In this document: positions 216-56,734 of the stretch, piece by piece
Layout: the number at the start of each line of letters is the position of its first letter
Numbering within the stretch: position 1 is the first letter of the stretch
Assembly (NCBI GenBank): GCA_006384855.1
Contig: VCJN01001577.1
Location: 1 to 64,000, forward strand
Length of the DNA: 64,000 nucleotides
From: Tetraselmis striata
Taxonomy: Eukaryota > Chlorophyta > Chlorodendrophyceae > Chlorodendrales > Chlorodendraceae
Reading direction: 5' to 3'
Position numbers and translations under genes: made by a program
Notes under the pieces: model-generated
Seen by the model: only the letters and a program-made list of their open reading frames with translations
The model's database searches: none
Told to the model about the DNA's origin: nothing

Positions 216-270
<55 letters not shown>

Positions 271-9993: not shown

Positions 9994-10214
9994 TAATAAA
10001 TGCTTCTGTGGCAGTGAGAAGACACGTTTATTCATTTTTCCATGCCTCCGTTTCGTGGTCAGTGCCGGGTATTTTCATGGCAGTGTTTCAGATGACGGTG
10101 ATCGTCCAACAGTGTTGAAAATTATCACACTAGCCTCTAATTAATCTTCCAGGATTATCTGTTTGGTTACAGGGAGAGCGTCAAGAGAATGCACGCAAAG
10201 TACTGGGGAAGGAA

Positions 10215-10683: not shown

Positions 10684-11241
10684 TTTCAAAGTTGAGTCTG
10701 GTTTGCCAAAAAGGTCGCGCAGGCTGTTTTACACGGTCAAGAGCCGAAATTGGCAGGATGGTTTAGCGATAGTCAGGGAGTCAGGGGGGGCGCTGCGTGG
10801 AACGCAGCGAAAACTGGAAGATGGCAGGCTCAGCTGTTCTGGCTGCTTTTATGTCTACTCGTGATGCACCCGAAATAGGGCGCAACAACAGATGCCTAGT
10901 TCCCGTACCACTGAGCAGCACTTGTAGCTAAAAGCGGTTAGGTCAAGGAGGGAAACCCCATAAACTAGTTTAGATCATTTCAAAGTTGAGTCTGGTTTTG
11001 CCAGTCTTGAGCGAACGGAGAGAGCGGTGGATTGACGGAGAAGAGGTAGCGCCAAGTCATGAAGGAGGCACTGGGAAGGCCACCGCTACGGAGTCTTGTT
11101 GGACTTGGAAGTGGCGGAGGGGGGCGATGTGTCCAAAGAAGAACCATGCGCCAGGTGAAGGAAGAACGTTGGGGTCGATGTAGTCCAGAACGACGTCAGA
11201 GTTAGTGGCCCAACCGCCTTGGTAGCGAATGTGGGACAATG

Positions 11242-14290: not shown

Positions 14291-14818
14291 CTATGCGGTC
14301 ATGCCGCAACAACCCCAGCACTGGCTTCTAGATACCTCTGATCTGGCTGGCGGCGGCGGGCTGCGGGATGCAGGGCCGCATGACTGAGGTGGCGGTGCTG
14401 GTGAGCCCGGAGAGTCTGCATGCGGCGGAGGCGGCGCAGCCGCATAGGCACTAGACAATGCTCTGAAGCGAGCCCCAATTGTCTGCCCAGCGCCTGCCCC
14501 AATGTAACGCACCAGCTTGGCAGCAATTGGCAGCTCTTTTGCCCCCCCCTCCACCCCACAGACACACTACCAATACCAGTTTCTCATCCCGGCGGGCAGT
14601 TGATGCGTATACCCAGGCTTGTGCGTCCGCGGTGCGGGGGGGGGGGGGGGGGGGGGGGAATCACTATAGCTAAGCTAGTGATGTGAGATATGAGTGCAGC
14701 AACAGATATTGTGCAAGATATAATACGATGGCATGCAAGCGGGTCCCCGCTCTTCCACAATCATTGGCCCTGCTCCCTCTTGCCCCGCCCCCGGTGCCCT
14801 TTAGCTGCTCTCAGCATC

Positions 14819-18686: not shown

Positions 18687-18785
18687 ACTAGCGGGAGACT
18701 AGACCCATTGTCGCTTATTTACAAGCACGGGCGGTGCTGCCAGACATGATCGTCTACGGCCGATATAATATTCACACTAAATTAA

Positions 18786-19691: not shown

Positions 19692-20391
19692 CCCCCGCCC
19701 CCTTACCCCCCCCCCCCCCCCCCCCCCCCAGGCGGGAGCGGCTGGCGGCGAGGGGGCTGGGGCTGGGTGGAGCGGCTGGGGCGGGGGGGGGCGGGGCGGG
19801 CGTGGTCCCCCCGCCCCCGCACCCCCCCCCCCCCCCCCCCCCGGGCCACATCCCCCGATGGCAGCTGTCGCGAATATTGTAATTCAAACATTCTTCGGCA
19901 AACCGCTGCCTGCCCCCGCCCTCCCCCTCGCGAATATTTATGTAACGTGAGCACTCTTTGGCAAAACATGGCAGCCAAACCGCCCATCTGATGACCTTTG
20001 ATCGGACGGCTGGCAGGCCCGATCAGCAGTACTAGTACTACAAATTCCCCAGTGTTACCAAGTACGTACGGCTGCGATTTGCGCTCCCATGTACTAATAG
20101 TCGTAGTTATCCACAGGACGACTCACAGGGTTCGTACTGATACCCGGTACCGGCGTAATAAATATATCGCGTACTACCCGGTACTACACGGACAACCTTG
20201 TACCTTGTACGTCAGTGCCATGTACGCTTCACCGGGCTGGTACGACTACCAGAATGATGACAAAAAGGATTTATCGCCCGCCGGCAATAACGCCGGATGT
20301 ACTCGCACGTAACTGGATGGACGTGCCGCCACCAGCAGCAGCCTTCACGGATAAATAATAGTCGCTAGTAGTAGTGCTTCGTCACCTGTAT
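19692..20391. other. Right subterminal region of the CACTA-like element
   Basis: Two poly-C tracts (about 19708-19729 and 19819-19842), a repeated CGCGAATATT motif (19870, 19931), and a GTAC-rich stretch at 20030-20240. No gene seen. Confidence 0.5.
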
Positions 20392-20413
20392 GTCACATCT
20401 GAATCTCACAGTG
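20392..20413 (-). repeat. Right terminal inverted repeat of CACTA-like element
   Basis: Perfect reverse complement of 11242-11263, followed directly by the second ATG of the 3-bp target-site duplication (20414-20416). Confidence 0.93.
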
Positions 20414-21897
20414 ATGGCACTCCTATGGCATTCGCTGCAGAGGCTGCGCCCTTGCGAAGACTGTGTGAAGTCCAGGAAGTGCCAGCAGGGGGGGCAGCGT
20501 TGACTAGACTGATGGCTGCAGACAGCCAGTCTGACATTGTAGCCGCAGTCCAAGGTTTTGACTGCTCGGCTGCCGTGACAGCCCAGAAGTTTGATGCAGC
20601 CAAGCCAACAGTAACCAGGGGGACAGATTGGACGTTGTCGATGAAGTGGTGCAAGAGACGTGCCACTCGAGGGTGCTCGGACACCGGAAGGAGAAGTACG
20701 CGCAGGTCGTCGGGTCCCCGTCGGCCAGCGCGACCCTTCTCGCGGTACACTTGCAAGGTGATGTTGTAGGTGTCGACATGCACATCTCGCACTCGACAGG
20801 AGACGCCATTAAGGCCCCTGGCAAAGAACATGAAGTTGACAACTGAGGCCAAGAGAGCTCGGAAGTCGAGGTGGTACTCTGGGTAAGGAGCAGACACAAT
20901 TAGCTCGCTCGGCCTTTGCGACGAAGCGATAGGCTACATCCGCAGGCAGAGGGACACGCAAAGGGGCAGCGTCCAGCCGGCGCTGACGCAACATCAGCCC
21001 ACGCCTTGCTGAAGTTAGGTGCAGACTGTCCTTGGCGATTGGGACGAGGTTGTGCAGCTCGAAGAACGTGTTGATTGCAGACAGGCAGGGTTGCAGCGAC
21101 TTAGCTGCGATGTGCCCTCGCTCCCCGATCCAGGCAACGTACCGAACGACAGTAGCGGTAGTCGCCTCCAACGGACTGATGTTTTCAGAGTCGTGACAGA
21201 ACTCCGCGAACTGAGACAGTCTGCCGGCGTAGCTCTTGAGGGTCTGAGCGCTGAGGGAGCTGGAGAGCAGGTCGAGCGTTCGCTGGCCCAGCTCGTCCGA
21301 GCCGAACGCGCCCTGCAGCCGGGATCGCAGTGACGCAGCCCACGGAGCGACAGCTGCGGGCTCGTCAATTACGTACGTGCGTCGTTTTACCGACAGAGTT
21401 CCACCGGTACGACTACTGTTCGCAAAGTACTCGGCAGTAGCGGTTAGGTTCCCGGCGGTTGGCCGGTAGCTGCTGGACGGGTTTGCAGTAGCCGCAGTAC
21501 TGGTTTGCGGGGCTAGGTTCAGGTAAGAGGGCCGCCCCGCGCGCCCTTCGCGCTCGTAGCGCCTGTCCCGTGCATAACGTACACGCGCGAAACTTGGTCG
21601 TTGCGAACCAGTTGTGACACGTAGTGTAACAACCGACGGACGCAGAGATGGGGTGGTAAGAAAAGCGGTTGGTTGAGCCGCCATGTGCAGGTGTGCGGAT
21701 GGTTGAGCCGCACTCGGCTGTAGCTGTAAGAAGCGCCGCACCGAGGAAGGTCTAAAGGAAGTCTGTAAGGTGGGGGGGTCAGGCCCTGACACAGGGCGCT
21801 CATCTCGCCGTTGCGCTGCAAGGGTGCGTCTTGCGGCGGTCACCGAAAGGTGGCCTCGCAAAGCTCCAGCAGCTCCGACAAAAGGCGCCCTACACCG
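20414..21897 (-). pseudogene. Tyrosine recombinase, copy A (broken)
   Basis: This is the recombinase gene of YR copy A, with its last ~60 codons displaced to 11057-11241 by the inserted transposon. The core-binding part (LKSYAGRLSQFAEFCHD) and the catalytic part (FFARGL, YREKGRAG, HSLRKGAASAA) are readable, but a 4-bp duplication near 20905 puts them in different frames. The frame is open upstream as far as the TGA that ends ORF1 at 21898-21900, as in the other copies. It cannot make an intact enzyme. Confidence 0.85.
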
Positions 21898-22775
21898 TCA
21901 CTCGTGCTCACCTTCGCGGCCACGTCCACGCCCGCCGCCACGTCCTCGCCCACGCCCGCGACCTGCAGCTGCAGCTGCTACTCGGGCAGTAGCGGTTGCC
22001 TTTGCGCTGCTGGCAACGGTCGCCTCGAAGACGCGACGCTCGTAGTCCCTCATGAGGTCCCCAAAAATCGCGGAACCTAGATGCTCCGAAGCAGGCTGAA
22101 AATGCTGGGCTCGCAGCACGTCCAGCACACCTTGGTCACCGTGCACACGCTTGATCTCATTTAGCCTCCGCAAGAAAGCCAAACGAAAACGAAACGCCTT
22201 GTCGATGGCCTCGGCGTGATTCCGAGCTCTCGCGAGGTAGGGGGTGAAGTCCTGGTTAGCGGCAGGGACGTAAGGTAGCAGCTCGTCGAGAGCCACGAAA
22301 AGTGCGGCCATGTGGGCCCCGAAACACGACATTCACAAATACTCTTCCTGGGCCGGCAGACGCCGGTCGTCTTGCTTGAGGTACTCGTTCGTTAGGTCGG
22401 TGCTCAGGGGGAAGAGTCCAGGCACTCGGCTGACCGGTCGAACGGCCTCGTAACCAGACTCTGCTCTCTGCAGTAGCTCTGGCACCGCGAGGTAGTCATC
22501 TTCGGCACTCACGGATTTTGCTCCGACACGGCCGCTCTGGGCTAGCTCTAGCAAGTCGGGGCGCTCTGCGGCTCCCCCGCTGCCTGTCGGCTGTCCCGCG
22601 AAGCGCTTCCCGGAGCCGGAGCCATGTGCCCCTTCCCCATCAACAACGCGATCACGAGCCGTCAATTGCGCCACAGCTGTAGCCAACTCTCGCAGTAATG
22701 AAGACTGGGCCCTCATATCTGCGTTCAGCGACTCCATCAGCGACTCCATCTGGCATGGTAACGCACGGACGTACG
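21898..22775 (-). pseudogene. Gag-like ORF1, copy A (interrupted)
   Basis: First coding region of YR copy A. The C-terminal 144 codons (MSCFGAHMAALFVALDEL ... RG-rich tail) are intact from 22332 to the TGA at 21898-21900. An in-frame TGA just upstream (about 22333-22335) replaces a TGG codon present in the 46-kb copy, and the N-terminal coding region has lost sequence between MPDG and the ESLNADMRAQSS segment, so the first ATG no longer reads in frame. Confidence 0.8.
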
Positions 22776-23643
22776 GACGAGAATATCACACTCGGGTGGT
22801 GAGCCGGGTGTGGTCTTGAACAACCTGGGGTGACCTTGCTCGCAACTGGTTACGAGACAGTTTTTACATCGCTGCGTGGAACGCAGCGAAAACTGGAAGA
22901 TGGCAGGCTCAGCTGTTCTGGCTGCTTTTATGTCTACTCGTGCTGCACCCGAAAAAGGGCGCAACAACAGATGCCTAGCTCCCGTACCACTGAGCAGCAC
23001 TTGTAGGTAAAAGCGGTTAGGTCAAGGAGGGAAACCCCATAAACTAGTTTAGATCATACCCGGGGAACCGGTGTGACATTTAAGCAGAACCCTCTTAGCG
23101 CCGGGATCTTCCAGGAGTTCTGTTTTTCCGCCCCCGGGACCCCAGGATGCTTCGGCAATTTGCTTGATGACTATGACCGAGCGTCGCATACCACTACCCA
23201 GGGCAGGGCTTTCAGTGACTGGATCCCTGCCGAAACGGCCGTCGTAGAGACGCTGCAAGGGTTTCACGGGTGCCAGTACTGCCTCGGGGGCGAAAAAACA
23301 GAGCAGGGCCGAGTCAAAAACCTAGCCTCAGCGTACCATTTATCCTAACCCTGAGAGCTACACCCTCCTACCTACCCCTGCTCCTACGACTACGGCAGGC
23401 GGACCCGCGTCACGCCGCCCGCGGCAGCAGGCGAGCGCCCGCGCCTCGTTGGGGTGATATGTATGCTCCGTCTGAAGATCTGGCGGCTACTGCCAGTACG
23501 CTGCTGTGATATTTGACCAAAGTCGTCTTCTGCCCTGCTGCGCACTTCAAAGGCCACCACCCTTAGCGGCACCGGGAATCTCAGAATCCTGGTATTTCCT
23601 TCGATTTCCGCCACTGATCTCAGCATAGCGCTCGCACAGTACA

Positions 23644-24835
<1,192 letters not shown>

Positions 24836-25898
24836 TAATAAATGCTTCTGTGGCAGTGAGAAGACACGTTTATTCATTTTTCCATGCCTCCGTTTCGTGG
24901 TCAATGCCGGGTATTTTCATGGCAGTGTTTCAGATGACGGTGATCGTCCAACAGTGTTGAAAATTATCACACTAGCCTCTAATTAATCTTCCAGGATTAT
25001 CTGTTTGGTTACAGGGAGAGCGTCAAGAGAATGCACGCAAAGTACTGGGGAAGGAAAAAGCCTACCACACCGGTTCGCGTAGGTACTCGTTTCTGAAGAC
25101 CGTAAACGGGTCTCAAATCCGAGATGTGTAGCTGGCAACGCTTTTTGGCTACGTGGCACGCGCTACGTGCGTAATATTAGCACGTGACCGCTCGCGCTCC
25201 TCCCTCATCATCCCGCCGCCAGCCCCATCCCTGCCCGCGACACACAAGACGAGGCACCTGAACGCCACCGTATGCCTACGTTAGCGCGCTGCTACCGCGG
25301 TATGCGCGTGATGGTGCCGGTCGGTGTGTTCGATTGGCATCGGTGGGGCGGGATGGGTTGGCGAGACGGGTGGTCACGTGGGCTCTGAGTTTTCATCAAA
25401 TGACGTTATATTTGACTGTATCAACCGGATACTAATCACTATTCGCACTCGTTTCGATAGTTGCATCTCAGGATTGTGACCCCGCTATACACAGCTTAAA
25501 CCCCGGGAGGATTTCATTTTGCGAGTTTCAAAGTTGAGTCTGGTTTGCCAAAAAGATCGCGCAGGCTGTTTTACACGGTCAAGAGCCGAAATTGGCAGGA
25601 TGGTTTAGCGATAGTCAGGGAGTCAGGGGGGGCGCTGCGTGGAACGCAGCGAAAACTGGAAGATGGCAGGCTCAGCTGTTCTGGCTGCTTTTATGTCTAC
25701 TCGTGATGCACCCGAAATAGGGCGCAACAACAGATGCCTAGTTCCCGTACCACTGAGCAGCACTTGTAGCTAAAAGCGGTTAGGTCAAGGAGGGAAACCC
25801 CATAAACTAGTTTAGATCATTTCAAAGTTGAGTCTGGTTTTGCCAGTCTTGAGCGAACGGAGAGAGCGGTGGATTGACGGAGAAGAGGTAGCGCCAAG

Positions 25899-27557
25899 TC
25901 ATGAAGGAGGCACTGGGAAGGCCACCGCTGCGGAGTCCTGTTGGACTTGGAAGTGGCGGAGGGGGGCGATGTGTCCAAAGAAGAACCATGCGCCAGGTGA
26001 AGGAAGAACGTTGGGGTCGATGTAGTCCAGAACGACGTCAGAGTTAGTGGCCCAACCGCCTTGGTAGCGAATGTGGGACAATGGCACTCCTATGGCATTC
26101 GCTGCAGAGGCTGCGCCCTTGCGAAGACTGTGTGAAGTCCAGGAAGTGCCAGCAGGGGGGGCAGCGTTGACTAGACTGATGGCTGCAGACAGCCAGTCTG
26201 ACATTGTAGCCGCAGTCCAAGGTTTTGACTGCTCGGCTGCCGTGACAGCCCAGAAGTTTGATGCAGCCAAGCCAACAGTAACCAGGGGGACAGATTGGAC
26301 GTTGTCGATGAAGTGGTGCAAGAGACGTGCCACTCGAGGGTGCTCGGACACCGGAAGGAGAAGTACGCGCAGGTCGTCGGGTCCCCGTTGGCCAGCGCGA
26401 CCCTTCTCGCGGTACACTTGCAAGGTGATGTTGTAGGTGTCGACATGCACATCTCGCACTCGACAGGAGACGCCAGTAAGGCCCCTGGCAAAGAACATGA
26501 AGTTGACAACTGAGGCCAAGAGAGCTCGGAAGTCGAGGTGGTACTCTGGGTAAGGAGCAGACACAATTAGCTCGGCCTTTGCGACGAAGCGATAGGCTAC
26601 ATCCGCAGGCAGAGGGACACGCAAAGGGGCAGCGTCCAGCCGGCGCTGACGCAACATCAGCCCACGCCTTGCTGAAGTTAGGTGCAGACTGTCCTTGGCG
26701 ATTGGGACGAGGTTGTGCAGCTCGAAGAACGTGTTGATTGCAGACAGGCAGGGTTGCAGCGACTTAGCTGCGATGTGCCCTCGCTCCCCGATCCAGGCAA
26801 CGTACCGAACGACAGTAGCGGTAGTCGCCTCCAACGGACTGATGTTTTCAGAGTCGTGACAGAACTCCGCGAACTGAGACAGTCTGCCGGCGTAGCTCTT
26901 GAGGGTCTGAGCGCTGAGGGAGCTGGAGAGCAGGTCGAGCGTTCGCTGGCCCAGCTCGTCCGAGCCGAACGCGCCCTGCAACCGGGATCGCAGTGACGCA
27001 GCCCACGGAGCGACAGCTGCGGGCTCGTCAATTACGTACGTGCGTCGTTTTACCGACAGAGTTCCACCGGTACGACTACTGTTCGCAAAGTACTCGGCAG
27101 CAGCGGTTAGGTTCCCGGCGGTTGGCCGGTAGCTGCTGGACGGGTTTGCAGTAGCCGCAGTACGGGTTTGCGGGGCTAGGTTCAGGTAAGAGGGCCGCCC
27201 CGCGCGCCCTTCGCGCTCGTAGCGCCTGTCCCGTGCATAACGTACACGCGCGAAACTTGGTCGTTGCGAACCAGTTGTGACACGTAGTGTAACAACCGAC
27301 GGACGCAGAGATGGGGTGGTAAGAAAAGCGGTTGGTTGAGCCGCCATGTGCAGGTGTGCGGATGGTTGAGCCGCACTCGGCTGTAGCTGTAAGAAGCGCC
27401 GCACCGAGGAAGGTCTAAAGGAAGTCTGTAAGGTGGGGGGGTCAGGCCCTGACACAGGGCGCTCATCTCGCCGTTGCGCTGCAAGGGTGCGTCTTGCGGC
27501 GGTCACCGAAAGGTGGCCTCGCAAAGCTCCAGCAGCTCCGACAAAAGGCGCCCTACA
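25899..27557 (-). CDS. Tyrosine recombinase of YR element B
   Basis: Catalyses strand exchange through a tyrosine-DNA covalent intermediate, presumably excision and integration of the element. The frame is open from directly after the ORF1 TGA (27560-27558), 552 codons; there is no obvious ATG near the start, so readthrough or an internal start is needed. After a low-complexity N-terminus comes a SAM-like core-binding domain (residues about 210-290, LKSYAGRLSQFAEFCHD), then the catalytic domain with arginine in FFARGLTGVSCRVRD, lysine in YREKGRAG, HSLRKG (HxxR), GGW and the nucleophile in VVLDYIDP. All catalytic positions are present. Family type is YR of DIRS/Ngaro or Crypton kind; subfamily not resolved. 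Confidence 0.88.
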   Translation of the reverse strand, partial: CRAPFVGAAGALRGHLSVTAARRTLAAQRRDERPVSGPDPPTLQTSFRPSSVRRFLQLQPSAAQPSAHLHMAAQPTAFLTTPSLRPSVVTLRVTTGSQRPSFARVRYARDRRYEREGRAGRPSYLNLAPQTRTAATANPSSSYRPTAGNLTAAAEYFANSSRTGGTLSVKRRTYVIDEPAAVAPWAASLRSRLQGAFGSDELGQRTLDLLSSSLSAQTLKSYAGRLSQFAEFCHDSENISPLEATTATVVRYVAWIGERGHIAAKSLQPCLSAINTFFELHNLVPIAKDSLHLTSARRGLMLRQRRLDAAPLRVPLPADVAYRFVAKAELIVSAPYPEYHLDFRALLASVVNFMFFARGLTGVSCRVRDVHVDTYNITLQVYREKGRAGQRGPDDLRVLLLPVSEHPRVARLLHHFIDNVQSVPLVTVGLAASNFWAVTAAEQSKPWTAATMSDWLSAAISLVNAAPPAGTSWTSHSLRKGAASAANAIGVPLSHIRYQGGWATNSDVVLDYIDPNVLPSPGAWFFFGHIAPLRHFQVQQDSAAVAFPVPPS

Positions 27558-27560
27558 CCG

Positions 27561-28436
27561 TCACTCGTGCTCACCTTCGCGGCCACGTCCACGCCCGCCG
27601 CCACGTCCTCGCCCACGCCCGCGACCTGCAGCTGCAGCTGCTACTCGGGCAGTAGCGGTTGCCTTTGCGCTGCTGGCAACGGTCGCCTCGAAGACGCGAC
27701 GCTCGTAGTCCCTCATGAGGTCCCCAAAATTCGTGGAACCCAGATGCTCCGAAGCATGCTGAAAATGCTGGGCTCGCAGCACGTCCAGCGCACCTTGGTC
27801 ACCGTGCACACGCTTGATCTCATTTAGCCTCCGCAAGAAAGCCAAACGAAAACGAAACGCCTTGTCGATGGCCTCGGCGTGATTCCGAGCTCTCGCGAGG
27901 TAGGGGGTGAAGTCCTGGTTAGCGGCAGGGACGTAAGGTAGCAGCTCGTCGAGAGCCACGAAAAGTGCGGCCATGTGGGCCCCGAAACACGACATTCACA
28001 AATACTCTTCCTGGGCCGGCAGACGCCGGTCGTCCTGCTTGAGGTACTCGTTCGTTAGGTCGGTGCTCAGGGGGAAGAGTCCAGGCACTCGGCTGACCGG
28101 TCGAACGGCCTCGTAACCAGACTCTGCTCTCTGCAGTAGCTCTGGCACCGCAAGGTAGTCATCTTCGGCACTCACGGATTTTGCTCCGACACGGCCGCTC
28201 TGGGCTAGCTCTAGCAAGTCGGGGCGCTCTGCGGCTCCCCCGCTGCCTGTCGGCTGTCCCGCGAAGCGCTGCCCGGAGCCGGAGCCATGTGCCCCTTCCC
28301 CATCAACAACGCGATCACGAGCCGTCAATTGCGCCACAGCTGTAGCCAACTCTCGCAGTAATGAAGACTGGGCCCTCATATATGCGTTCAGCGACTCCAA
28401 CGTCGGCTCGGCGACGGGTTCTTCTCCATCTGGCAT
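27561..28436 (-). CDS. Gag-like ORF1 of YR element B (internal TGA)
   Basis: ATG at 28436 (MPDGEEPVAEPTLESLN). An N-terminal helical/coiled-coil segment (QSSLLRELATAVAQL), a central helical domain (FGAHMAALFVALDELLPYV; HAEAIDKAFRFRLAFLRRL) and a C-terminal RG-rich tail (GRGRGRGRGGGRGRGRE) make it look like a Gag or nucleic-acid-packaging protein. An in-frame TGA at 27996-27998 stands where the 46-kb copy has TGG (Trp), splitting it into 146 and 144 codons. The terminal TGA at 27561-27563 leads straight into the recombinase frame. Function is inferred from layout. Confidence 0.7.
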
Positions 28437-29324
28437 GGTAACGCACGGACGTACGGACGAGAATATCACACTCGGGTGGTGAGCCGGGTGTGGTCTTGAA
28501 CAACCTGGGGTGACCTTGCTCGCAACTGGTTACGAGACAGTTTTTACATCGCTGCGTGGAACGCAGCGAAAACTGGAAGATGGCAGGCTCAGCTGTTTTG
28601 GCTGCTTTTATGTCTACTCGTGCTGCACCCGAAAAAGGGCGCAACAACAGATGCCTAGCTCCCGTACCACTGAGCAGCACTTGTAGGTAAAAGCGGTTAG
28701 GTCAAGGAGGGAAACCCCATAAACTAGTTTAGATCATACCCGGGGAACCGGTGTGACATTTAAGCAGAACCCTCTTAGCGCCGGGATCTTCCAGGAGTTC
28801 TGTTTTTCCGCCCCCGGGACCCCCAGGATGCTTCGGCAATTTGCTTGATGACTATGACCGAGCGTCGCATACCACTACCCAGGGCAGGGCTTTCAGTGAC
28901 TGGATCCCTGCCGAAACGGCCGTCGTAGAGACGCTGCAAGGGTTTCACGGGTGCCAGTACTGCCCCGGGGGCGAAAAAACAGAGCAGGGCCGAGTCAAAA
29001 ACCTAGCCTCAGCGTACCATTTATCCTAACCCTGAGAGCTACACCCTCCTACCTACCCCTGCTCCTACGACTACGGCAGGCGGACCCGCGTCACGCCGCC
29101 CGCGGCAGCAGGCGAGCGCCCGCGCCTCGTTGGGGTGATATGTATGCTCCGTCTGAAGATCTGGCGGCTACTGCCAGTACGCTGCTGTGATATTTGACCA
29201 AAGTCGTCTTCTGCCCTGCTGCGCACTTCAAAGGCCACCACCCTTAGCGGCACCGGGAATCTCAGAATCCTGGTATTTCCTTCGATTTCCGCCACTGATC
29301 TCAGCATAGCGCTCGCACAGTACA

Positions 29325-30483
<1,159 letters not shown>

Positions 30484-41150: not shown

Positions 41151-42515
41151 TCAGCCAACGACAGTGACAGGATAGCCAGGGCAGCATAGCCGCGGCCAGA
41201 TGTGCACCATGCTACATCTCCCCTCACCAATGCGAGCCACAACAGTTGCTCTGACTGGCAATCGTGGAAAAAACTGTGCGGAGCTCTTACTATGTGTTGA
41301 TGATTTATCCTCAGGAGCTTGATAGCAACATTTTTTGTCAACAGATATCCCCCTACGTTGAGCGGAAACTTTTTGAGATCGTGCCAAACTTACCGAATGG
41401 TGCGTAGAAGAATTGAAGGGTTGGTGGACCATTTGGAGGATGGTGTGTACGGCCAATGGACCCGCTCCTCGGGGCGACTTTACGCTCAAGTAATTAACTT
41501 TGCACTGCTGGTAGTCAACTCCAGACATCTGAGGTGGGCGGCAGTCCTTCCACTTCCCCACAAAGCAAAATGTGTCGCCGGACTCGCACCGGCCATCAGT
41601 CACCGGCATCATTGCCGGATCTTCCTGGGCAACCACCGGCACGCCCAGCATGTCCAGGACGTACTTGAGGTAGGTCTCGCTGTTTGTCACCCGGAGCCTA
41701 CGCCAGTCCCCTTGATTGCTGGATTGAAAGTGGTCTGCCGGGCCGCGCAGTGCGCTGTCCATGTGCTTGCGGGGAATCAGCATCGTCTTGTCGGCATAGC
41801 CGCCCCATGAAGAGCACGCCTTGGCCATCACTGGCAGCGAGCTCACCATGGAAACGGCCGCTCTGGGCGACCGCAGCCGGCCCCGCCCACCGGGGTCAAC
41901 CGAGGTCATCATGCGGCGCAGCGGCCGCTCCAGATGGAATGGGCGCATAATCAGTGAGTTGTCCCGCACGCGCAAGATGACATGGTACTGAGCACCGTTC
42001 CTTTGCTCTGCCTGCTCGACCGCGTCCGCGCAGTCCCTCCAGCTGAGATGCTGGTCGAAGACCCGCTGCATGAGCGTCTGAAGAGAGACAGTTTGCAATG
42101 GCTCGTAGGCGGGCCAGACGGAGGTGTTCATCTCGTGCGCTACGCGCGGGCGCTCGATGCCGTGAACCGTGGCACCGTGGGCGGATATTTGGCTCGCCGC
42201 CTCCTGCAGTGACCCCGGAGCGGCGGTGCATTCGTTTTGCACCGCCCTGGTGGAATAGCGCGGCTCACCACTTTGCAGCACCAGAAACCAGTCCACAGCT
42301 GCCCAATGGCGGTTTGGCTGAAGGATGTTGGCGATCTTGGACTCCAGCTCCAGGCGGCCAACCTGCCCCACCACGCACACCGCCGCCCGCAACATGTAAA
42401 GTGGCTCTTGCGCAGCTACCCGTGCAGCTTGGGCAACCAAGCGCGGCTGATGTCCGGCGTCGCCGCTTAGCAAGAGCAGCGCCACGGCGACGGTGATTCT
42501 AAGATAGAACTGCAT
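41151..42515 (-). CDS. Glycosyltransferase-like secretory protein, copy 2 (C-extended)
   Basis: ATG at 42515 (MQFYLRITVAVALLLLSG, a signal peptide or signal anchor), 454 codons to TGA at 41151. Family features: AAVCVVGQVGRLELESKI near the N-terminus, YHVILRVRDNSLIMRPF (an R-x-R-D motif like that of sugar-nucleotide transferases of GT-A type), CSSWGGYADKTMLIPRKHM, ETYLKYVLDMLGVPVV and paired cysteines in GRCESGDTFC. This layout occurs in uncharacterised algal and stramenopile proteins thought to be Golgi glycosyltransferases; the role is inferred, not shown. Compared with copy 3 it has about 100 extra C-terminal residues after KVNYL, probably from loss of the ancestral stop. No introns. Confidence 0.65.
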   Translation of the reverse strand: MQFYLRITVAVALLLLSGDAGHQPRLVAQAARVAAQEPLYMLRAAVCVVGQVGRLELESKIANILQPNRHWAAVDWFLVLQSGEPRYSTRAVQNECTAAPGSLQEAASQISAHGATVHGIERPRVAHEMNTSVWPAYEPLQTVSLQTLMQRVFDQHLSWRDCADAVEQAEQRNGAQYHVILRVRDNSLIMRPFHLERPLRRMMTSVDPGGRGRLRSPRAAVSMVSSLPVMAKACSSWGGYADKTMLIPRKHMDSALRGPADHFQSSNQGDWRRLRVTNSETYLKYVLDMLGVPVVAQEDPAMMPVTDGRCESGDTFCFVGKWKDCRPPQMSGVDYQQCKVNYLSVKSPRGAGPLAVHTILQMVHQPFNSSTHHSVSLARSQKVSAQRRGISVDKKCCYQAPEDKSSTHSKSSAQFFPRLPVRATVVARIGEGRCSMVHIWPRLCCPGYPVTVVG

Positions 42516-46046: not shown

Positions 46047-46233
46047 ATGATCTAAACTAGTTTATGGGGTTTCCATCCTTGACCTAACCGCTTTTCAGCT
46101 ACAAGTGCTGCGCAGTGGTACGGGAACTAGTAACTGTTGTTGCGCCCTTGTTGGGTGCAGCACGAGTAGACATAAAAGCAGCCAGAACAGCTGAGCCTGC
46201 CATCTTCCAGTTTTCGCTGCGTTCCACGCAGCG
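46047..46233 (+). repeat. A1 repeat of YR element D
   Basis: Begins ATGATCTAAACTAGTTTATG and ends with a 19-bp hairpin. Matches A2 (48962-49152), which has four extra bases (GCGG) near its start. Confidence 0.93.
46215..46233. promoter_or_regulatory. 19-bp hairpin at the inner end of the A repeat
   Basis: CGCTGCGT and ACGCAGCG pair around a 3-base loop. The same hairpin ends every A repeat: 49134-49152, 25633-25651, 28550-28568, 10791-10809 and 22870-22888. In the diverged copy (50342-50360) one stem pair has changed from C-G to T-A on both sides. Possible recombinase arm site or RNA signal; role inferred. Confidence 0.7.
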
Positions 46234-46346
46234 ATGTAAAAACTGTCTCGTAACCCGTTGCGAGCAAGGTCACCCCAGGTTGGTCAAGACCACACCCGGC
46301 TCGCCACCCGAGTGTGATATTCTCGTCCGTACGTCCGTGCGTTACC

Positions 46347-47222
46347 ATGCCAGATGGAGAAGAACCCGTCGCTGAGCCGACGTTGGAGTCGCTGAACGCA
46401 GATATGAGGGCCCAGTCTTCATTACTGCGAGAGCTGGCTACAGCTGTGGCACAATTGACGGCTCGTGATCGTGTTGTTGGTGGAGAAGGGGCACATGGCT
46501 CCGGCTCCGGGCAGCGCTTCGCGGGACAGCCGACAGGCAGCGGGGGAGCCGCAGAGCGCCCCGACTTGCTAGAGCTAGCCCAGAGCGGCCGTGTCGGAGC
46601 AAAATCCGTGAGTGCCGAGGATGATTACCTCGCGGTGCCAGAGCTACTGCAGAGAGCAGATTCTGGTTACGAGGCCGTTCGACCGGTCAGCCGAGTGCCT
46701 GGACTTTTCCCTTTGAGCACCGACCTAACGAACGAGTACCTCAAGCAGGATGACCGGCGTCTGCCGGCCCAGGAGGAGTACTTGTGGATGTCGTGTTTCG
46801 GGGCCCACATGGCCGCCCTTTTCGTGGCGCTCGACGAGCTGCTACCTTACGTCCCCGCCACTAACCAGGACTTCACCCCCTACCTCGCGAGAGCTCGGAA
46901 TCACGCCGAGGCCATCGACAAGGCGTTTCGTTTTCGTCTAGCCTTCCTGCGGAGGCTGAATGAGATCAAGCGTGTGCACGGTGACCAAGGTGTTCTGGAC
47001 GTGCTGCGAGCTCAGCATTTTCAGCCTGCTTCGGAGCATCTGGGTTCTGCGATTTTTGGGGACCTCATGAGGGACTACGAGCGTCGTGTCTTCGAGGCGA
47101 CCGTGGCCAGCAGCGCCAAGGCGACCGCTACTTCTCGAGTAGCGGCTGCAGCTGCAGGTCGCGGGCGTGGGCGAGGACGTGGCGGCGGACGTGGACGCGG
47201 CCGCGAAGGTGAGCACGAGTGA
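46347..47222 (+). CDS. Gag-like ORF1 of YR element D (intact)
   Basis: ATG at 46347, 291 residues, ending at TGA 47220-47222. Order: short acidic leader, predicted coiled coil (RAQSSLLRELATAVAQL, about residues 22-40), Gly/Ser linker, a helical domain around EYLWMSCFGAHMAALFVA (about 145-165) and FRFRLAFLRRLNEIKRVHG (about 195-213), then an RG-rich tail (about 270-291) of the kind that binds nucleic acid. This is the only copy with Trp (TGG) rather than TGA in EYLWMS. Its stop lies in the same frame as the recombinase with no other stop until the frameshift downstream. A Gag-type role is inferred from position and composition. Confidence 0.75.
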   Translation: MPDGEEPVAEPTLESLNADMRAQSSLLRELATAVAQLTARDRVVGGEGAHGSGSGQRFAGQPTGSGGAAERPDLLELAQSGRVGAKSVSAEDDYLAVPELLQRADSGYEAVRPVSRVPGLFPLSTDLTNEYLKQDDRRLPAQEEYLWMSCFGAHMAALFVALDELLPYVPATNQDFTPYLARARNHAEAIDKAFRFRLAFLRRLNEIKRVHGDQGVLDVLRAQHFQPASEHLGSAIFGDLMRDYERRVFEATVASSAKATATSRVAAAAAGRGRGRGRGGGRGRGREGEHE

Positions 47223-48883
47223 CGGCGTGGGGCGCCGCTCGTCGGAGCTGCAGGAGCCTTGCGAGGCCACCTTTCGGTGACCGCCGCAAGACGCACCCTT
47301 GCAGCTCAACGGCGGGATGAGCGCCCTGTGTCAGGACCTGACCCCCCCACCTTACAGACTTCATTTAGACCTTCCTCGGTGCGGCGCTTCTTACAGCTAC
47401 AGCCGAGTGCGGCTCAACCATCCGCACGCCTGCACATGGCGGCTCAACCATCCGCCTTTCTTACACCCCATCTCTGCGTTCGTCGGTTGTTACACTACGT
47501 GTTACAACCGGTTCGCAACGACCAAGTTTCGCGCGTGTACGTTACGCACGGGACAGGCGCTACGAGCGCGAAGGGCGCGCGGGGCGGCCCTCTTACCTGA
47601 ACCTAGCCCCGCAAACCCGTACTGGAGCTACTGCAAACCCGTCCAGCAACTACCGGCCAACCGCCGGGAACCTAACTGCTGCTGCCGAGTACTTTGCGAC
47701 CAGTAGCCGTGCCGGTGGAACTCTGTCAGTAAAACGACGCACTTACGTAATCGACGAGCCCGCAGCTATCGCTCCATGGGCTGGGTCACTGCGATCTCGG
47801 ATGCAGGACGCGTTCGGCTCAGACGAGCTAGGCCAGCGGACGCTGGACCTGCTCTCCAGCTCCCTCAGCGCGCAGACCCTCAAGAGCTACGCCGGCAGAC
47901 TGTCTCAGTTCGCTGAGTTCTGCCACGACTCCGAGAACATCAGCCCGCTGGAAGCGACTACTGCTACTGTTGTTCGGTACGTTGCCTGGATCGGGGAGCG
48001 AGGGCACATCGCAGCTAAGTCGCTGCAGCCCTACCTGTCTGCCATCAACACCTTCTTCGAGCTGCACAACCTCGTCCCGATCGCCAAGGACAGCCTACAC
48101 CTCACTTCGGCAAGGCGTGGGTTAATGTTGCGGCAGCGCCGACTTGACGCTACCCCTCTGCGTGTCCCTCTGCCTGCGGATGTAGCTTACCGCTTCGTCT
48201 CAAAGGCCGAGCTAATTGTGTCTGCTCCTTACCCAGAGTCCCACCTCGACTACCGAGCTCTCTTGGCCTCGGTTGTCAACTTCCTGTTCTTTGCCAGGGG
48301 CCTGATTGGCGTCTCCTGTCGAGTGCAAGATGTGCATGTCGACACCTACAACATCACCTTGCAGATCTACCGCGAGAAGGGTCGGGCTGGCCGGCGGGGA
48401 CCCGACGACCTGCGCGTACTTCTCCTTCCAGTGTCCGAGCACCCTCGAGTGGCACAACTCTTGCGCTACTTCATCGACAACGTCCAGTCTGTCCCCCTGG
48501 TTACTGTTGGCTTGGCTGCCTCCAACTTCTGGGCTGTCAATGTGGCTGAGCAGTCAAAACCTTGGACTGCGGCTACGATGTCAGACTGGTTGTCTACAGC
48601 AGTCAACCTAGTCAACGCTGCCCCCCCTGCTGGCACTTCCTGGACTTCACACAGTCTACGCAAGGGCGCAGCCTCTGCAGCAAACGCCATCGGAGCGCCA
48701 CTGTCCCACATCCGCTACCAAGGCGGTTGGGCCACTAACTCCGATGTCGGTTTGGACTACATCGATCCCAACGTTCTTCCTTCTCCTGGCGCGTGGTTCT
48801 TCTTTGGACACATCGCCCCCCTCCGCCACTTCCAAGTCCAACAGGACTCCGCAGCGGTGGCCTTCCCAGTGCCTCCTTCATGA
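47223..48883 (+). pseudogene. Tyrosine recombinase of YR element D (1-nt frameshift)
   Basis: Continues in frame from the ORF1 TGA. One base is missing near 47462 (CTTACACCCC against CTTACCACCCC in copy B), shifting the N-terminal portion out of frame. From 47801 the frame is intact for 360 codons and includes the core-binding domain, FFARGLIGVSCRVQD, YREKGRAG, HSLRKGAASAA, GGWATNSDVGLDYIDP and the conserved C-terminus. The catalytic residues therefore survive, and an internally initiated product starting MQDAFGSDELG (47801) is conceivable. Confidence 0.85.
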
Positions 48884-48936
48884 CTTGGCGCTACCCCTTC
48901 TCCGTCAATCCACCGCTCTCTACGTTCGCTCAAGAC

Positions 48937-48964
48937 TGGCAAAACCAGACTCAACTTTGAAATG
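48937..48964 (+). repeat. B1 repeat of YR element D
   Basis: 28 bp starting TGGCAAAACCAGACTC and ending ATG, overlapping the first three bases of A2. One mismatch to B2. Confidence 0.9.
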
Positions 48965-49152
48965 ATCTAAACTAGTTTATGGGCGGGGTTTCCATCCTTG
49001 ACCTAACCGCTTTTTAGCTACAAGTGCTGCGCAGTGGTACGGGAACTAGTAACTGTTGTTGCGCCCTTGTTGGGTGCAGCACGAGTAGACATAAAAGCAG
49101 CCAGAACAGCTGAGCCTGCCATCTTCCAGTTTTCGCTGCGTTCCACGCAGCG
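48962..49152 (+). repeat. A2 repeat of YR element D
   Basis: Near-identical to A1 (46047-46233), ending in the same 19-bp hairpin at 49134-49152; contains a GCGG duplication after TTTATGG. Confidence 0.93.
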
Positions 49153-49245
49153 CCCCCCCTGACTCCGTTTTCCCTCCACGCTTTTCGCTAAACCTTCCTG
49201 CCAATTTCGGCTCTTGACCGTGTAAAACAGCCTGCGCGACCTTTT

Positions 49246-49273
49246 TGGCAAAAACAGACTCAACTTTGAAATG
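49246..49273 (+). repeat. B2 repeat of YR element D (right end)
   Basis: 28 bp TGGCAAAAACAGACTC...ATG, matching B1. Marks the right boundary; the flanking CAAGGAAACCAG is non-element sequence. Confidence 0.88.
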
Positions 49274-49886: not shown

Positions 49887-50341
49887 CGAATCCCCGGTTA
49901 AGCAAGTACGCGAGTCTGCCTTTGTGGCGGCGACTGGCGAGGACAGCAACGGCCGCCAGGACGTTTGCGAAAAAAGCCTGCCCTCGGCGACAACGGCAGC
50001 TTCCGTGCGACTGAACGGCACCGTTGCAGCCTCGAATTGAGCCGGCATGTTCTTTGCTGGGTGCTTCCGTCATTGGGTTTGCTTAAGCGAGGTTGCGGGT
50101 GTGGCTGAGGGAGTCCATCGCGGGAGGGGTGGGCGGCCGCCGGGAGCTGGCGTTCGCAAGATCCCCCACGCGAGTGGTGGCGGGAAGCCGGTACACCATC
50201 CAGCATTAGATCCAGATGAGCCGTCCGATGGACTGGGCGCCCTCTGAAACGCGTTGACCGCCGTCCATTTAGCCAACCGGAAATGTACGTTCCCGCGCAA
50301 TCAATAAGGAAAGCGTGGAGGGAAAACGGAGTCAGGGCGGG
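49887..50341. other. Intergenic, no recognised gene
   Basis: GC-rich sequence without a supported gene, leading to the diverged YR relic. Confidence 0.45.
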
Positions 50342-51272
50342 CGCTGTGTGTAACACAGCGAAACAGGAAGATGGCAGGCTCACCTGTTACGGCTGCTTTT
50401 ATGTCTACTCGTGCTGCATCCAAAGGGCGCAAAGACGGGTGAGCTAGTTAACCCGTACCACTTATCAGCAACTGTAGTGGCCGGAAAAGCGATTAGGAAA
50501 GGAGGAAACCGGATAAATTTGTTTGGATCATTTCAAGTTGACTCTGGTTTCGCCATGGATGAGCGAGCGGATAGAGCACGGCTATATACATAGAGCAGTA
50601 TATTGACTAAGAAGGAGTAGCGCCATGTTTGGGGCCGCCGGGAAGGCCACCGCTGCGGAGTCTTGTTGAACTTGGAAGTGGCGAAGAGGCGCGATGTGAC
50701 CGAAGAAGACAAACCACGGGAACGGTGAGGGGAGGACGTTCGAGTCGATGTAGTCCGGAACGACGTCGGAGTTCGTGGCCCAGCCGCCTTGGTGGCGAAT
50801 GTGGGACAGCGGGACCCCGATGGCGTTAGCAGCAGAGGCTGTACCCTTGCGAAGGCTGTGAGAGCTCCAAAATTTGCCGGCGGGAGGGGTAGCACCGACA
50901 AGACGAACGGCCGTAGAGAGCCAGTCCGACAATTTTTGGACTGCTCTCTCGGGGCGACCGCCCAGAAGTTTGTCTCGGCCAAGGAAGCAGGGACCGTGGG
51001 CGGGGGCAGACTGTTGTCGATTAAGTGGTGCACGAGACGGGCGACGCGGGGGTGCTCCGACATATGACGATGTAGCACACGTAGGTCATCGGGGCCGCTG
51101 CGCCGACCGGCACGCCCCTTCTCTCGGTATACATGCAGAGTGATGTTGTAGGAGTCGACATGCACGTCCCGCACTCGGCAGGAAACGCCAAGAAGTCACT
51201 GCTGGCAAAGAACATGAAGTTGACAACTGAAGGAATGAGGGCTCGGAAGTCGTAGTACTAGTACTCGAGGGG

Positions 51273-51304
<32 letters not shown>

Positions 51305-51423
51305 AGGCGCAAACAATAAACTCGGACGAGTGAACTAGTTAATCCGTACCACTTAGCATCAACATTAGATAGCCGGAAAAGCGGTTAGGAAAGGAGGAAA
51401 CCCCATAAACTAGTTTAGATCAT
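50342..51423 (-). mobile_element. Diverged, deleted YR element relic (copy E)
   Basis: Minus-strand relative with clear substitutions throughout: A2 50342-50531 with its hairpin, B1 50529-50555, recombinase remnants 50582-51240, then a poly-G tract (about 51276-51304) and the end of A1 (about 51329-51423). ORF1 and the recombinase N-terminus are gone. The catalytic motif HSLRKGTASAANAIGVPLSH and GGWATNSDVVPDYIDS remain but are split over frames. It shows that the family has been present long enough to diverge. Confidence 0.85.
50582..50932 (-). pseudogene. Recombinase catalytic fragment of copy E
   Basis: 116 codons covering MSDWLSTAV through HSLRKG, GGW and VVPDYID to the terminal FFGHIAPLRHFQVQQDS region. 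Upstream sequence (REKGRAGRRSGPDD around 51100) lies in a different frame. Confidence 0.8.
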
Positions 51424-52140
51424 TACAAGGGGAGAGAATTCCAAGCATGCAATCGAGTCGGGTTTAATTTGCCAATAAGGGTGCGAAGGCTGGTTTATAC
51501 GGAAAGAGTTCACTTTTCTGGCTAGAAACCACAGCGAACGGGGGAGGGGGGGGGTGTCGGACAAGGCGGGAGTGTGGAACACGAAAACGGAGATGGGAGG
51601 GGCAGGTGGAACACATAGGGTGGGGGTACAGCTTCGGCAGCGAGTTGGAAGATGGCAGGCGAGTTGGTGGTGGCTGTCCTATCTAAGCTCCCCTCCCCGG
51701 CCGGAAAAGCATGGCTCACATGCGATGGAGCAGCCCGGATTGAAACCTGGTTGTACGGGTAACTTTCCCGTCTAAAATCACTTGCAGACCGCACAGGTTG
51801 CTCTAGGACAGTAACCACTGGTGTAAGCCGGCCGGAGCAGGCGCCGGGAAGCCGGATGCACAAGAGGGCGAATGTCGGTGTGAAGCATTGCCCCGAAGCG
51901 CCGTCGCGAGTGTTACGAATAACACCAACGGCATCCGTACGGGGCACATGAGCACATCCCATTTGAAGCCCGCCCGCGGGCTTCATGACGTACTAGGAGG
52001 TGTCGCAGTTAAGGGTTACCGAACGCCACTTAAGTGTTACTAGCCAATGCCGAGCGAAATTGATGTCACAAGGGCGAGGGACAAACGAACGTGGAGGCCC
52101 GGGAGTGACACTGTGCACCTCGGCGGGCTCGTGCGCGGGA
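51424..52140. other. Intergenic, no recognised gene
   Basis: A degraded relative of the B/A flank (CGGGTTTAATTTGCCAATAAGG, about 51459) lies just outside the relic. A tRNA-like T-arm on minus near 51730 was judged insufficient. Confidence 0.4.
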
Positions 52141-55666: not shown

Positions 55667-56734
55667 TTAACCCACTCTTTTGCTTAAATAACTCAGCTTA
55701 CACTCCTGGTACTTAACCCCGGACACCGGTTGTGGGCGGCAGTCCTTGGAATTGTTCACAAAGCAGAACGTGTCGCCGGACTCGCACCGGCCGTCGGTGA
55801 CCGGCATCAGTGCCGGATCTTCCTGGGCAACCACCGGCACGCCCAGCATGTCCAAGACGTACTTGAGGTACGTCTCGGTGTTCCTCACTTCCCTCCAACC
55901 CCTGCCACGGGCACTGGTGGACTGAAAGTGGTCTGCCGGGCCGCGCAGTGCGCTGCCCATGTGCTGGCGGGGGATCAGCATCGTCTTGTCGGCATAGCCG
56001 CCCCATGCAGAGCACGCCTTGGCCATCACTGGCAGCGAGCTCAGCATGGAAATCTCCTTCTTGCGCGACGTCACGTGTCCCCGCTTGCCCTTGGCAACAG
56101 ACGCCAGCATCAGGCTGCGAAGCGGCTGCTCCAGATGGAATGGGCGCAGAATCAGTGAGTTGTCCCGCACGCGCAATACGACATGATACTGAGCACCGTT
56201 CCTTTGCTCGGCCTGCTCGACCGCGTCCGCGCAGTCCCTCCAGCTGAGCAGCTGCTCGAAATTCTTCTGCATTCTCACCTGTAACGTTGCCGTCTGTGAG
56301 GCTTGGTACGCCGGCCAGATGGAGGTGTTCAGCTGGTGCACTCGCCGCGGGCGCTCGATGGCGACAACCGTCGCATTGTGCGCAGATATCTGGCTGGCCG
56401 CTTCCTGGAGCGATCCCGGCGCTGCCGAACACTTCTGTTTCGGGGCTGTATTCGTATAGTGGGGCTCGCCACTTCGCAGCAACAAAAACCACTCCACGGT
56501 CACTAAATGGCGGTTTGGCTTCAGGATGTTGGCGATCTTGGACTCCAGCTCCAGGCGGCCGACCTGCCCCACCACGCATACCGCCGCCCGCAGCAGGGAG
56601 GGCGGATTTTCCGGAACTAACCGTGCAGCTTGGGCAGCCATGTGCGGCCGCTGTCCGACGTCGCCACATAGAATGAGCAGCACCACTGCGACGACCGTTC
56701 TCAGAGAGGACAGCATACCGCCTCTGCGAGGCAT
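55667..56734 (-). CDS. Glycosyltransferase-like secretory protein, copy 3
   Basis: ATG 56734, 355 residues, stop TAA, no intron. A hydrophobic signal segment (residues about 9-24, LRTVVAVVLLILCGD) precedes LLRAAVCVVGQVGRLELESK. Conserved blocks: WRDCADAVEQAEQRNG, YHVVLRVRDNSLILRPF (R-x-R-D), KACSAWGGYADKTMLIPRQH, ADHFQ, ETYLKYVLDMLGVPVVAQ and GRCESGDTFCFV. Cysteines at the two ends suggest a lumenal, disulphide-bonded domain. It is the intact reference for the family in this window; copies 1 and 2 share most of these blocks. A Golgi GT-A-type transferase is the best guess from the R-x-R-D and C-x-x-WGG-x-x-DK motifs; donor and acceptor are unknown. Confidence 0.7.
   Translation of the reverse strand: MPRRGGMLSSLRTVVAVVLLILCGDVGQRPHMAAQAARLVPENPPSLLRAAVCVVGQVGRLELESKIANILKPNRHLVTVEWFLLLRSGEPHYTNTAPKQKCSAAPGSLQEAASQISAHNATVVAIERPRRVHQLNTSIWPAYQASQTATLQVRMQKNFEQLLSWRDCADAVEQAEQRNGAQYHVVLRVRDNSLILRPFHLEQPLRSLMLASVAKGKRGHVTSRKKEISMLSSLPVMAKACSAWGGYADKTMLIPRQHMGSALRGPADHFQSTSARGRGWREVRNTETYLKYVLDMLGVPVVAQEDPALMPVTDGRCESGDTFCFVNNSKDCRPQPVSGVKYQECKLSYLSKRVG

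What the first reader, a model, noticed from the sequence alone, without database searches (positions are those of the whole stretch)
46047..49273. Split-direct-repeat tyrosine-recombinase element with no reverse transcriptase
Seen: A1-ORF1-YR-B1-A2-B2 order with 187/191-bp A repeats and 28-bp B repeats, a Gag-like RG-rich ORF1 and a complete YR catalytic signature. The same compact layout (about 3.2 kb) recurs in copies A and B. Known: Ngaro, PAT and Kangaroo retroelements use this repeat order but encode RT-RNase H; Cryptons have YR without such repeats. Inference: either a distinct RT-less YR transposon class or a family of structured non-autonomous derivatives that kept both Gag and YR.
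Basis: partly seen in the sequence, partly recalled or inferred. Interest (0 to 1): 0.87.

Follow-up and report, generated by a model that had tools for sequence, protein, structure and literature searches.

The report
Half of a two-part jumping gene
In a marine green alga, a very abundant mobile element carries the coat and DNA-joining genes but no copying enzyme, and a separate mobile element with matching ends carries only the copying enzyme, so the two look like the halves of one retrotransposon split over two DNA units.

Summary
Window 46047-49273 is a 3.2-kb element A1-Gag-YR-B1-A2-B2 with no reverse transcriptase (RT). The host is a Tetraselmis (best hits T. striata). The genome has 701 matches to its B1A2 junction pattern. 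In 7 of 20 best-scoring copies both frames are uninterrupted, and Gag and YR show purifying selection. An older, decayed copy about 21% diverged is RT-less too, so the lineage is long-lived.

Its terminal 27 nt match the Gag-YR element (25 of 27). Complete relatives (gag+RT+YR, 4.9 kb) have different ends, and no complete element with the shared ends turned up among the copies examined. Twice, an RT element is fused to a Gag-YR end exactly at the recombination point. Best explanation: a bipartite PAT/Toc-type YR retrotransposon, with Gag and YR from one element and RT-RNase H from the other. Shown: anatomy, shared ends, selection, fused junctions. Inferred: trans reverse transcription. My literature searches listed no such system.

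The parts
46047..46233 (+). A1 split direct repeat; its first 27 nt match the RT element's terminus (25 of 27)
46347..47222 (+). ORF1, Gag (291 aa, RG-rich C-terminus, no zinc knuckle)
   Evidence: weakly homologous by phmmer to gag of complete relatives; pN/pS 0.12
47259..48883 (+). YR region, frameshifted near 47465 in this copy; open ATG frame 47801-48883 (360 aa) with SAM-like and catalytic domains
   Evidence: pN/pS 0.16 across uninterrupted copies
48937..48964 (+). B1 repeat; with A2 it forms the internal junction CTTTGAA-AT-GATCTAAAC
48962..49152 (+). A2 repeat (97% to A1)
   Evidence: A1/A2 evolve in concert within copies
49153..49245 (+). 93-bp spacer between A2 and B2
   Evidence: 92 bp in the complete relative L055, 80 bp in the RT element L051
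49246..49273 (+). B2 terminal repeat
25526..28737 (-). copy B, full length, 541-aa YR frame open; inside a tandem segmental duplication
20352..23057 (-). copy A, same insertion as B by segmental duplication; lacks B1-A2-B2
10684..11241 (-). tail fragment of a third duplicate (YR end, B1-A2-B2)
50310..51428 (-). diverged remnant of a Gag-YR-type element (about 74% nt over its YR end), with A-like stretches at 51334-51428 and 50342-50531

Best explanation
The finding is the Gag-YR half of a two-component (bipartite) PAT/Toc-type tyrosine-recombinase retrotransposon. Component 1 (3.2 kb, in the window) makes Gag and the recombinase. Component 2 (3.05 kb, elsewhere in the genome) makes RT-RNase H with a Dam-like domain. 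Neither carries the other's genes, and together they have the gene set of complete relatives. Proposed cycle: RNA of each component is packaged by Gag and copied by the RT of component 2; the split direct repeats let the cDNA be closed into a circle across the B-A junction; the YR of component 1 recombines circles of both components into new sites through their shared ends, without target-site duplication. SHOWN: the layouts, the shared ends, absence of gag/YR in component 2 and of RT in component 1 in the copies examined, purifying selection on all three proteins, insertion without duplication at the three empty sites found, exact fusion of the two components' ends at two places, tandem arrays of near circle-sized units. 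INFERRED: packaging and reverse transcription in trans, circles as intermediates, mutual dependence.
For: (1) RT element: 22 of 30 fetched RT loci are this type; 18 of the 22 gave both ends and measure 3.04-3.06 kb (in L031 A1 is only partial; L024 and L027 share one flank), 4 lack an end. RVT_1 2.8e-16, RT_RNaseH 9.3e-6. The RT frame fills it: no other plus-strand frame of 160 codons or more in L051 between the repeats, none of 130 on the minus strand. (2) Its first 27 nt match the Gag-YR element at 25 of 27, the B1A2 junction at 85% over 41 nt; the rest of the A repeats gave no alignment. Complete relatives L055/L056, homologous to both (RT about 61% nt, YR 40% aa), have other ends. (3) Junction pattern counts: 701 Gag-YR type, 131 RT type. 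(4) Of 74 RT hits of this type on contigs up to C2224, 50 have the junction 1091-1119 bp downstream; 5 lie farther, 19 have no exact junction; the far one fetched, C1208, holds a 5.5-kb nested insert. (5) Uninterrupted copies: pN/pS YR 0.16 (16 copies, 120 pairs), Gag 0.12 (6, 15), RT 0.18 (8, 28). (6) An older, decayed Gag-YR copy, 78-79% identical over element positions 2-3138, has no RT. (7) RT end fused exactly to a Gag-YR A repeat in L059 and L060; about 0.0002 expected if insertion were random. (8) Head-to-tail arrays with 2917-2918-bp period against 2915 bp from A1 to A2 in the window copy; checked on DNA at C2200 and C1388. (9) A1 and A2 of a copy resemble each other more than permuted pairs: 1 of 5000 (Gag-YR, 16 loci) and 0 of 5000 (RT, 17 loci) permutations as close.
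Against: No direct evidence that this RT copies the Gag-YR RNA. Two searches for intron-less copies across gene-model splice sites found 0. The mirror fusion (Gag-YR end to RT start) was not confirmed: 0 exact hits; of 4 one-mismatch hits the 2 fetched are diverged Gag-YR elements, the other 2 look like ordinary Gag-YR junctions (read from the listing only). A third candidate RT-to-Gag-YR fusion, C792, was rejected on its DNA; C348, C1146 and C1936 in the same listing were not followed up, and 26 of its 126 hits were not listed. With interrupted RT copies included, RT dN/dS is higher (median 0.30, up to 0.90 for pairs with L028). Loci were picked by protein score, which lowers dN. Other RT sources exist in this genome (L052, L055 families). 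RT junctions are about five times rarer than Gag-YR junctions (patterns differ in degeneracy). A complete element with these ends could be missing from the assembly or unsampled, since only best-scoring hits are listed. Gag homology to complete relatives is weak (24% identity to L056), and the Gag model failed (pLDDT 37.6). The RT tree does not resolve the RT-only group's nearest relative.
Confidence: 0.72

Rival explanations
1. Both families are non-autonomous derivatives of a complete (gag-RT-YR) master element with the same ends, which is extinct, rare or missing from the assembly; the conserved proteins are recent leftovers.
For: Non-autonomous derivatives sharing termini with a complete helper are the usual case (recalled); complete PAT-type elements exist in this genome (L055, L056, L052); searches list only the best-scoring copies.
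Against: No complete element with these ends among the copies examined; pN/pS 0.12-0.18; an old Gag-YR copy diverged by about 21% is already RT-less; outside about 27 terminal nt the two families' A repeats gave no alignment, so they do not look like recent deletions of one parent.
Confidence: 0.13
2. The Gag-YR element is a self-sufficient DNA-only YR transposon that spreads by excision and integration of circles; the RT element is a parasite of its recombinase.
For: Tandem arrays of near circle-sized units and excision-like A-spacer-B2 remnants; Gag-YR junctions outnumber RT junctions; no intron-less copies found.
Against: It keeps a Gag under purifying selection and split direct repeats that evolve in concert, features of YR retrotransposons; excision-integration alone does not obviously give hundreds of copies.
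Confidence: 0.09
3. The Gag-YR element borrows RT from unrelated complete PAT-type elements (L055 or L052 families), and the RT-only element is a coincidental derivative.
For: Complete families are present; L056 has open gag and RT-YR frames.
Against: Of the RT families seen only the RT-only family shares the Gag-YR ends; L055, L056 and L052 ends differ. The two exact end-to-end fusions involve the RT-only family.
Confidence: 0.06

Closest known systems
PAT-like YR retrotransposons, Toc3-type (green algae; PMC4157794, passages seen)
   Same: Split direct repeats A1-B1-A2-B2; YR; Gag without zinc finger; RT-RNase H and a Dam-like (sub-threshold) domain when both components are taken together; no target-site duplication at the sites examined
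   Different: Genes are divided over two separately mobile elements; the window element alone has no RT, RNase H or MT domain
L055/L056 complete family of the same genome
   Same: Same repeat layout and spacer length; homologous RT (about 61% nt), YR (40% aa) and Gag (weak)
   Different: Single 4.9-kb element with gag, RT and YR; different terminal sequence (in L055 itself the gag frame is broken; in L056 it is open)
Ngaro and Kangaroo elements (passages in PMC4157794, PMC3266345)
   Same: YR with split direct repeats
   Different: Both encode RT; Ngaro lacks MT; Kangaroo has an inverted YR
SIRE, the truncated non-autonomous form of VIPER (PMC6681497, passages seen)
   Same: A shorter derivative within YR retrotransposons
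   Different: SIRE keeps only VIPER's 5' and 3' ends; the Gag-YR element keeps two genes under selection
Crypton DNA transposons (PMC3212892, start of abstract only; features recalled)
   Same: YR, no RT
   Different: Cryptons have no Gag and no split direct repeats (recalled)
Helper/non-autonomous LTR pairs such as RIRE2/Dasheng, BARE1/BARE2 (recalled, no call)
   Same: Elements sharing termini, proteins supplied in trans
   Different: There one partner supplies what the other lacks; here the gene sets are reciprocal and neither is complete

Membership tests
PAT-like (Toc3-type) YR retrotransposon | Split direct repeats A1...B1-A2...B2 | tested here: met
PAT-like (Toc3-type) YR retrotransposon | Tyrosine recombinase | tested here: met
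   SAM-like 2.9e-8; Phage_integrase 7e-4 (below its cut-off); catalytic residues read by eye (recalled motif); 40% aa to the L055 YR
PAT-like (Toc3-type) YR retrotransposon | RT-RNase H encoded by the same element | tested here: not met
   present only on the second element
PAT-like (Toc3-type) YR retrotransposon | Methyltransferase (Dam-like) domain in the same element | tested here: not met
   Absent here; sub-threshold Dam match (0.0072) on the RT element
PAT-like (Toc3-type) YR retrotransposon | Gag without zinc finger | tested here: met
   no zf-CCHC match; one is found in the L052 gag
PAT-like (Toc3-type) YR retrotransposon | No target-site duplication (for DIRS1-like in PMC3266345; for PAT recalled) | tested here: met
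   of 33 joined-flank queries 3 found a site without the element: L040 and L030 (RT) cleanly, L014 (Gag-YR) less cleanly
Crypton | YR without RT | tested here: met
Crypton | No Gag and no split direct repeats (recalled) | tested here: not met
Ngaro | RT present, MT absent | tested here: not met
   No RT in this element
Bipartite YR retrotransposon (proposed here) | Two elements with complementary gene sets and the same ends | tested here: met
Bipartite YR retrotransposon (proposed here) | No complete element with the same ends in the genome | tested here: inconclusive
   None among copies examined, but only best-scoring hits are listed
Bipartite YR retrotransposon (proposed here) | Each needs the other for transposition | not testable with these tools
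   needs a transposition assay

The most novel reading that the evidence does not exclude
An obligate multipartite retrotransposon: a retroelement whose genome is permanently divided over two independently integrated, mutually dependent DNA elements (Gag + YR and RT-RNase H), held together by shared recombination ends rather than by physical linkage, as multipartite viruses are by packaging. Diverged RT-less Gag-YR copies suggest the arrangement has lasted a long time.
Probability: 0.6. Interest if true: 0.93.

Novelty: new variant of a known kind. Interest (0 to 1): 0.85.

Why it matters
Non-autonomous elements are normally read as parasites of a complete helper. Here neither partner is complete, yet both have intact copies, are numerous and show purifying selection. 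That would make a retrotransposon a cooperating two-part system and raise testable questions: how linkage is maintained, why the recombinase half is several times commoner, and whether Gag and RT act in trans without preference for their own RNA. It also separates the recombinase and RT functions of YR retrotransposons naturally, which opens the poorly known YR-retrotransposon cycle to direct test in an alga.

Tried and rejected

Rejected: P0076 (RVT_1 plus Gag-YR) as an autonomous form, because its RT is of Ty3/gypsy type by its motifs (read by eye) and stands before Gag. P0130 (Gag-YR then RT-RNase H in one gene model) as a complete element, because YR stands before RT, the reverse of complete relatives; not checked on DNA. 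C1208 (junction 6.6 kb from the RT), because it is an RT element with a 5.5-kb nested insert. C343, because it is a Gag-YR tail next to an RT element. C792 as a fusion, because ordinary flank precedes the A repeat. Copies A and B as independent insertions.

Rows dropped: dN/dS used only loci with full-length ungapped frames (Gag 12 of 20 loci, YR 19 of 20, RT 13 of the 22 RT loci of this type) and then only uninterrupted ones (6, 16, 8, whose Gag set of 10 left out L010 and L015; L002, with a 292-aa Gag, was added to the count of intact copies). Loci were chosen by protein score, which favours low dN. The A1/A2 test used 16 of 20 and 17 of 22 loci with both repeats found by the search word. 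Of 150 RT hits, 101 were taken as this type by match length. Of 120 listed RT homologues plus own-genome RTs, 42 rows went into the tree. One search counts only junctions with A or C at one chosen position (22), so it is not a full count of other junction kinds.
Full report
HOST AND SCALE. The YR of copy B finds 337 proteins; of the 120 listed, 119 are Tetraselmis striata gene models (78-97% identical over the aligned part) and one is from a JGI metagenome. So the window is from a Tetraselmis genome. That genome (G000: 224 Mb, 2903 contigs) can be searched. The 541-aa YR has 7783 first-look candidates; of the 80 scored, 80 match end to end and 75 have no stop. These are the best-scoring copies, so the intact fraction is biased upward.

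ANATOMY. The element at 46047-49273 is A1(187)-Gag-YR-B1(28)-A2(191)-93 bp-B2(28). Of 20 fetched loci, 16 show both ends at the same place: left end GATCTAAACTAGTTTATGGGGTTTC, right end CAACTTTGAA or close to it, internal junction CTTTGAA-AT-GATCTAAAC. The 17 loci with a readable A1 start have 17 different left flanks; one of the 20, L001, is the window's own copy B. In 18 of 20 loci the Gag match ends about 40 nt before the YR frame; in L006 and L009 it stops at residue 253, about 150 nt before. No RT lies between. Both frames are uninterrupted in 7 of 20 loci. In the window copy the YR frame is shifted near 47465.

THE WINDOW COPIES. Copies A and B and the 10.7-kb fragment are parts of a tandem segmental duplication that carries a dynein LC8 gene (LC8 query recalled). 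They count as one insertion. The finding itself is a second insertion. A diverged relative lies at 50310-51428. The window has no RT hit; only the shared B1A2 stretch matches the RT element.

THE SECOND COMPONENT. A search of the same genome with a recalled DIRS-type RT probe (2590 candidates, 150 scored) gave two main RT types. One (763-aa frame) forms a 3.05-kb element A1(180)-RT-RNase H-B1A2-B2(29). The RT frame fills it; the minus strand has no frame over 129 codons. Of 30 fetched RT loci, 22 are this type and 8 the L052 type; 18 of the 22 gave both ends at 3.04-3.06 kb (in L031 A1 is only partial), 4 lack an end. Its ends match those of the Gag-YR element: 25 of 27 nt at the start, 85% over 41 nt at B1A2. 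The rest of the A repeats gave no alignment. The other RT type (L052) is a complete element with a zinc-knuckle gag and different ends; its YR reading has one internal stop.

COMPLETE RELATIVES. The P0194 family (L055, L056) is a Toc3-like element of about 4.9 kb: gag, RT-RNase H-Dam region, YR, and the same A1..B1A2..B2 layout with a 92-bp spacer in L055. In L055 the gag frame is broken; in L056 gag and the RT-YR frame are open. Its RT is about 61% identical in nucleotides to the RT element, its YR 40% in amino acids to the Gag-YR recombinase, and its gag weakly similar. Its ends are different. In a 42-row RT tree the RT-only group is one clade (100/100) inside a clade (92/94, drawn open) with the L055 and P0160 families and metagenome proteins; the branching among them is unresolved.

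COUNTS. B1A2 pattern hits: 701 Gag-YR type and 131 RT type. The patterns differ in degeneracy, so the ratio is approximate. A partial check for other junction kinds, those with A or C at one position, gave 22. Of 101 RT hits taken as this type, 74 lie on contigs up to C2224 (where the junction listing ends): 50 have the junction 1091-1119 bp downstream, 5 farther, 19 none on that strand. Three of the far ones lie at 6.6 kb; the one fetched (C1208) holds a 5.5-kb unrelated insert.

SELECTION AND AGE. Among uninterrupted copies, pooled pN/pS is 0.16 for YR (16 copies, 120 pairs), 0.12 for Gag (6, 15) and 0.18 for RT (8, 28). With interrupted copies included the RT median is 0.30, and pairs with the decayed L028 reach 0.90. 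Picking hits by protein score biases these values downward, but that is unlikely to give 3% replacement change at synonymous divergence of 0.25 (YR). An older, decayed Gag-YR copy at C132 is colinear with the window element over positions 2-3138 at 78-79% identity, with Gag followed by YR and no RT; its frames are broken and its B2 was not found. The A2 start of this copy and of one at C2608 matches the RT element's 27 nt at 26 of 27, so the shared end looks ancestral.

RECOMBINATION. Of 33 joined-flank queries, 3 found a site without the element: two RT copies cleanly, one Gag-YR copy less cleanly; none shows a duplication. Head-to-tail arrays with a period of 2917-2918 bp occur at C2200, C1388 and C2249; the window copy has 2915 bp from A1 to A2. 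At C2200 and C1388 the DNA reads YR-B1-A-Gag without spacer or B2, as expected if an A1..B1 circle integrates at a B1A2 junction; unequal crossing-over is an alternative. At C2695 an RT element with both ends but broken frames is joined to a Gag-YR element with full-length Gag and YR exactly at the crossover. At C1267 an RT element is joined to an A-spacer-B2 remnant of a Gag-YR element. Chance expectation for such exact abutment is about 0.0002 (random targets assumed). A third candidate (C792) failed on inspection; C348, C1146 and C1936 were not followed up and 26 of 126 hits were not listed. No mirror-image fusion was confirmed. Within a copy, A1 and A2 resemble each other more than permuted pairs in both families, as the reverse-transcription model for split-repeat elements predicts (PMC6681497, passages seen).

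WHAT IS NOT SHOWN. Nothing here shows that the RT copies Gag-YR RNA. Intron-less copies were not found, which is neutral, since the introns are only gene-model predictions. A complete element with these ends cannot be excluded, because the tools list only the best copies.

LITERATURE. PAT, Toc and Kangaroo definitions are from passages of PMC4157794 and PMC3266345. PAT-like elements are reported in Chlamydomonas relatives (PMC8226300, passages) and Ectocarpus (PMC12477816, passages). Searches for split-repeat, RT-less, bipartite or split retrotransposons and for Tetraselmis retrotransposons (listings) showed no such system. The two papers that hold the phrases use them otherwise: an engineered vector plus helper (PMC2923131) and internally deleted RTE derivatives (PMC7245038) (passages). 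Only open-licence papers are held.

VERDICT. The element is one half of what is most likely a bipartite YR retrotransposon: by its gene set it fails the single-element definition of PAT-like, but it works like one with its partner.

Noticed in passing
window 8252-11241, 20352-30480: Tandem segmental duplication of a unit holding a Gag-YR copy and a dynein light chain LC8 gene (exons at 8807/9667, 23644/24509, 29325/30199).
   Followed up: partly
window 16789-18693: Tandem array of about five copies of a 368-371-bp unit, mostly 97-100% identical, less at its edges.
   Followed up: no
window 13186-14390: About 1.2 kb of 30-bp tandem repeats, open in several frames on both strands.
   Followed up: no
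window 32433-33316, 41503-42386, 55761-56587: Three related copies of an unnamed protein gene (..DCADAVEQAEQRNGAQYHV..), 78-92% identical, the first inverted to the other two; no Pfam match for the two frames scanned.
   Followed up: no
window 34012-34755: Endonuclease/exonuclease/phosphatase domain ORF (Pfam 2.6e-9), possibly from a LINE.
   Followed up: no
L010 and L060: A lone A-spacer-B2 unit sits about 8 nt upstream of a Gag-YR A1 in both; may be an excision footprint or a neighbouring insertion with a short coupling stretch.
   Followed up: partly
L052:1412-7268: A second complete PAT-type family with zinc-knuckle gag, 206-bp A and 68-bp B repeats.
   Followed up: partly
P0028, P0100 (Tetraselmis gene models): Gene models splice Gag to YR in clusters of 92 and 67 member sequences; if real, the recombinase would be made as a Gag-YR fusion by splicing.
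   Followed up: partly
P0001 (JGI metagenome protein, contig 5779 bp): A 92% identical YR in a metagenome suggests the family also occurs in wild Tetraselmis-like algae.
   Followed up: no
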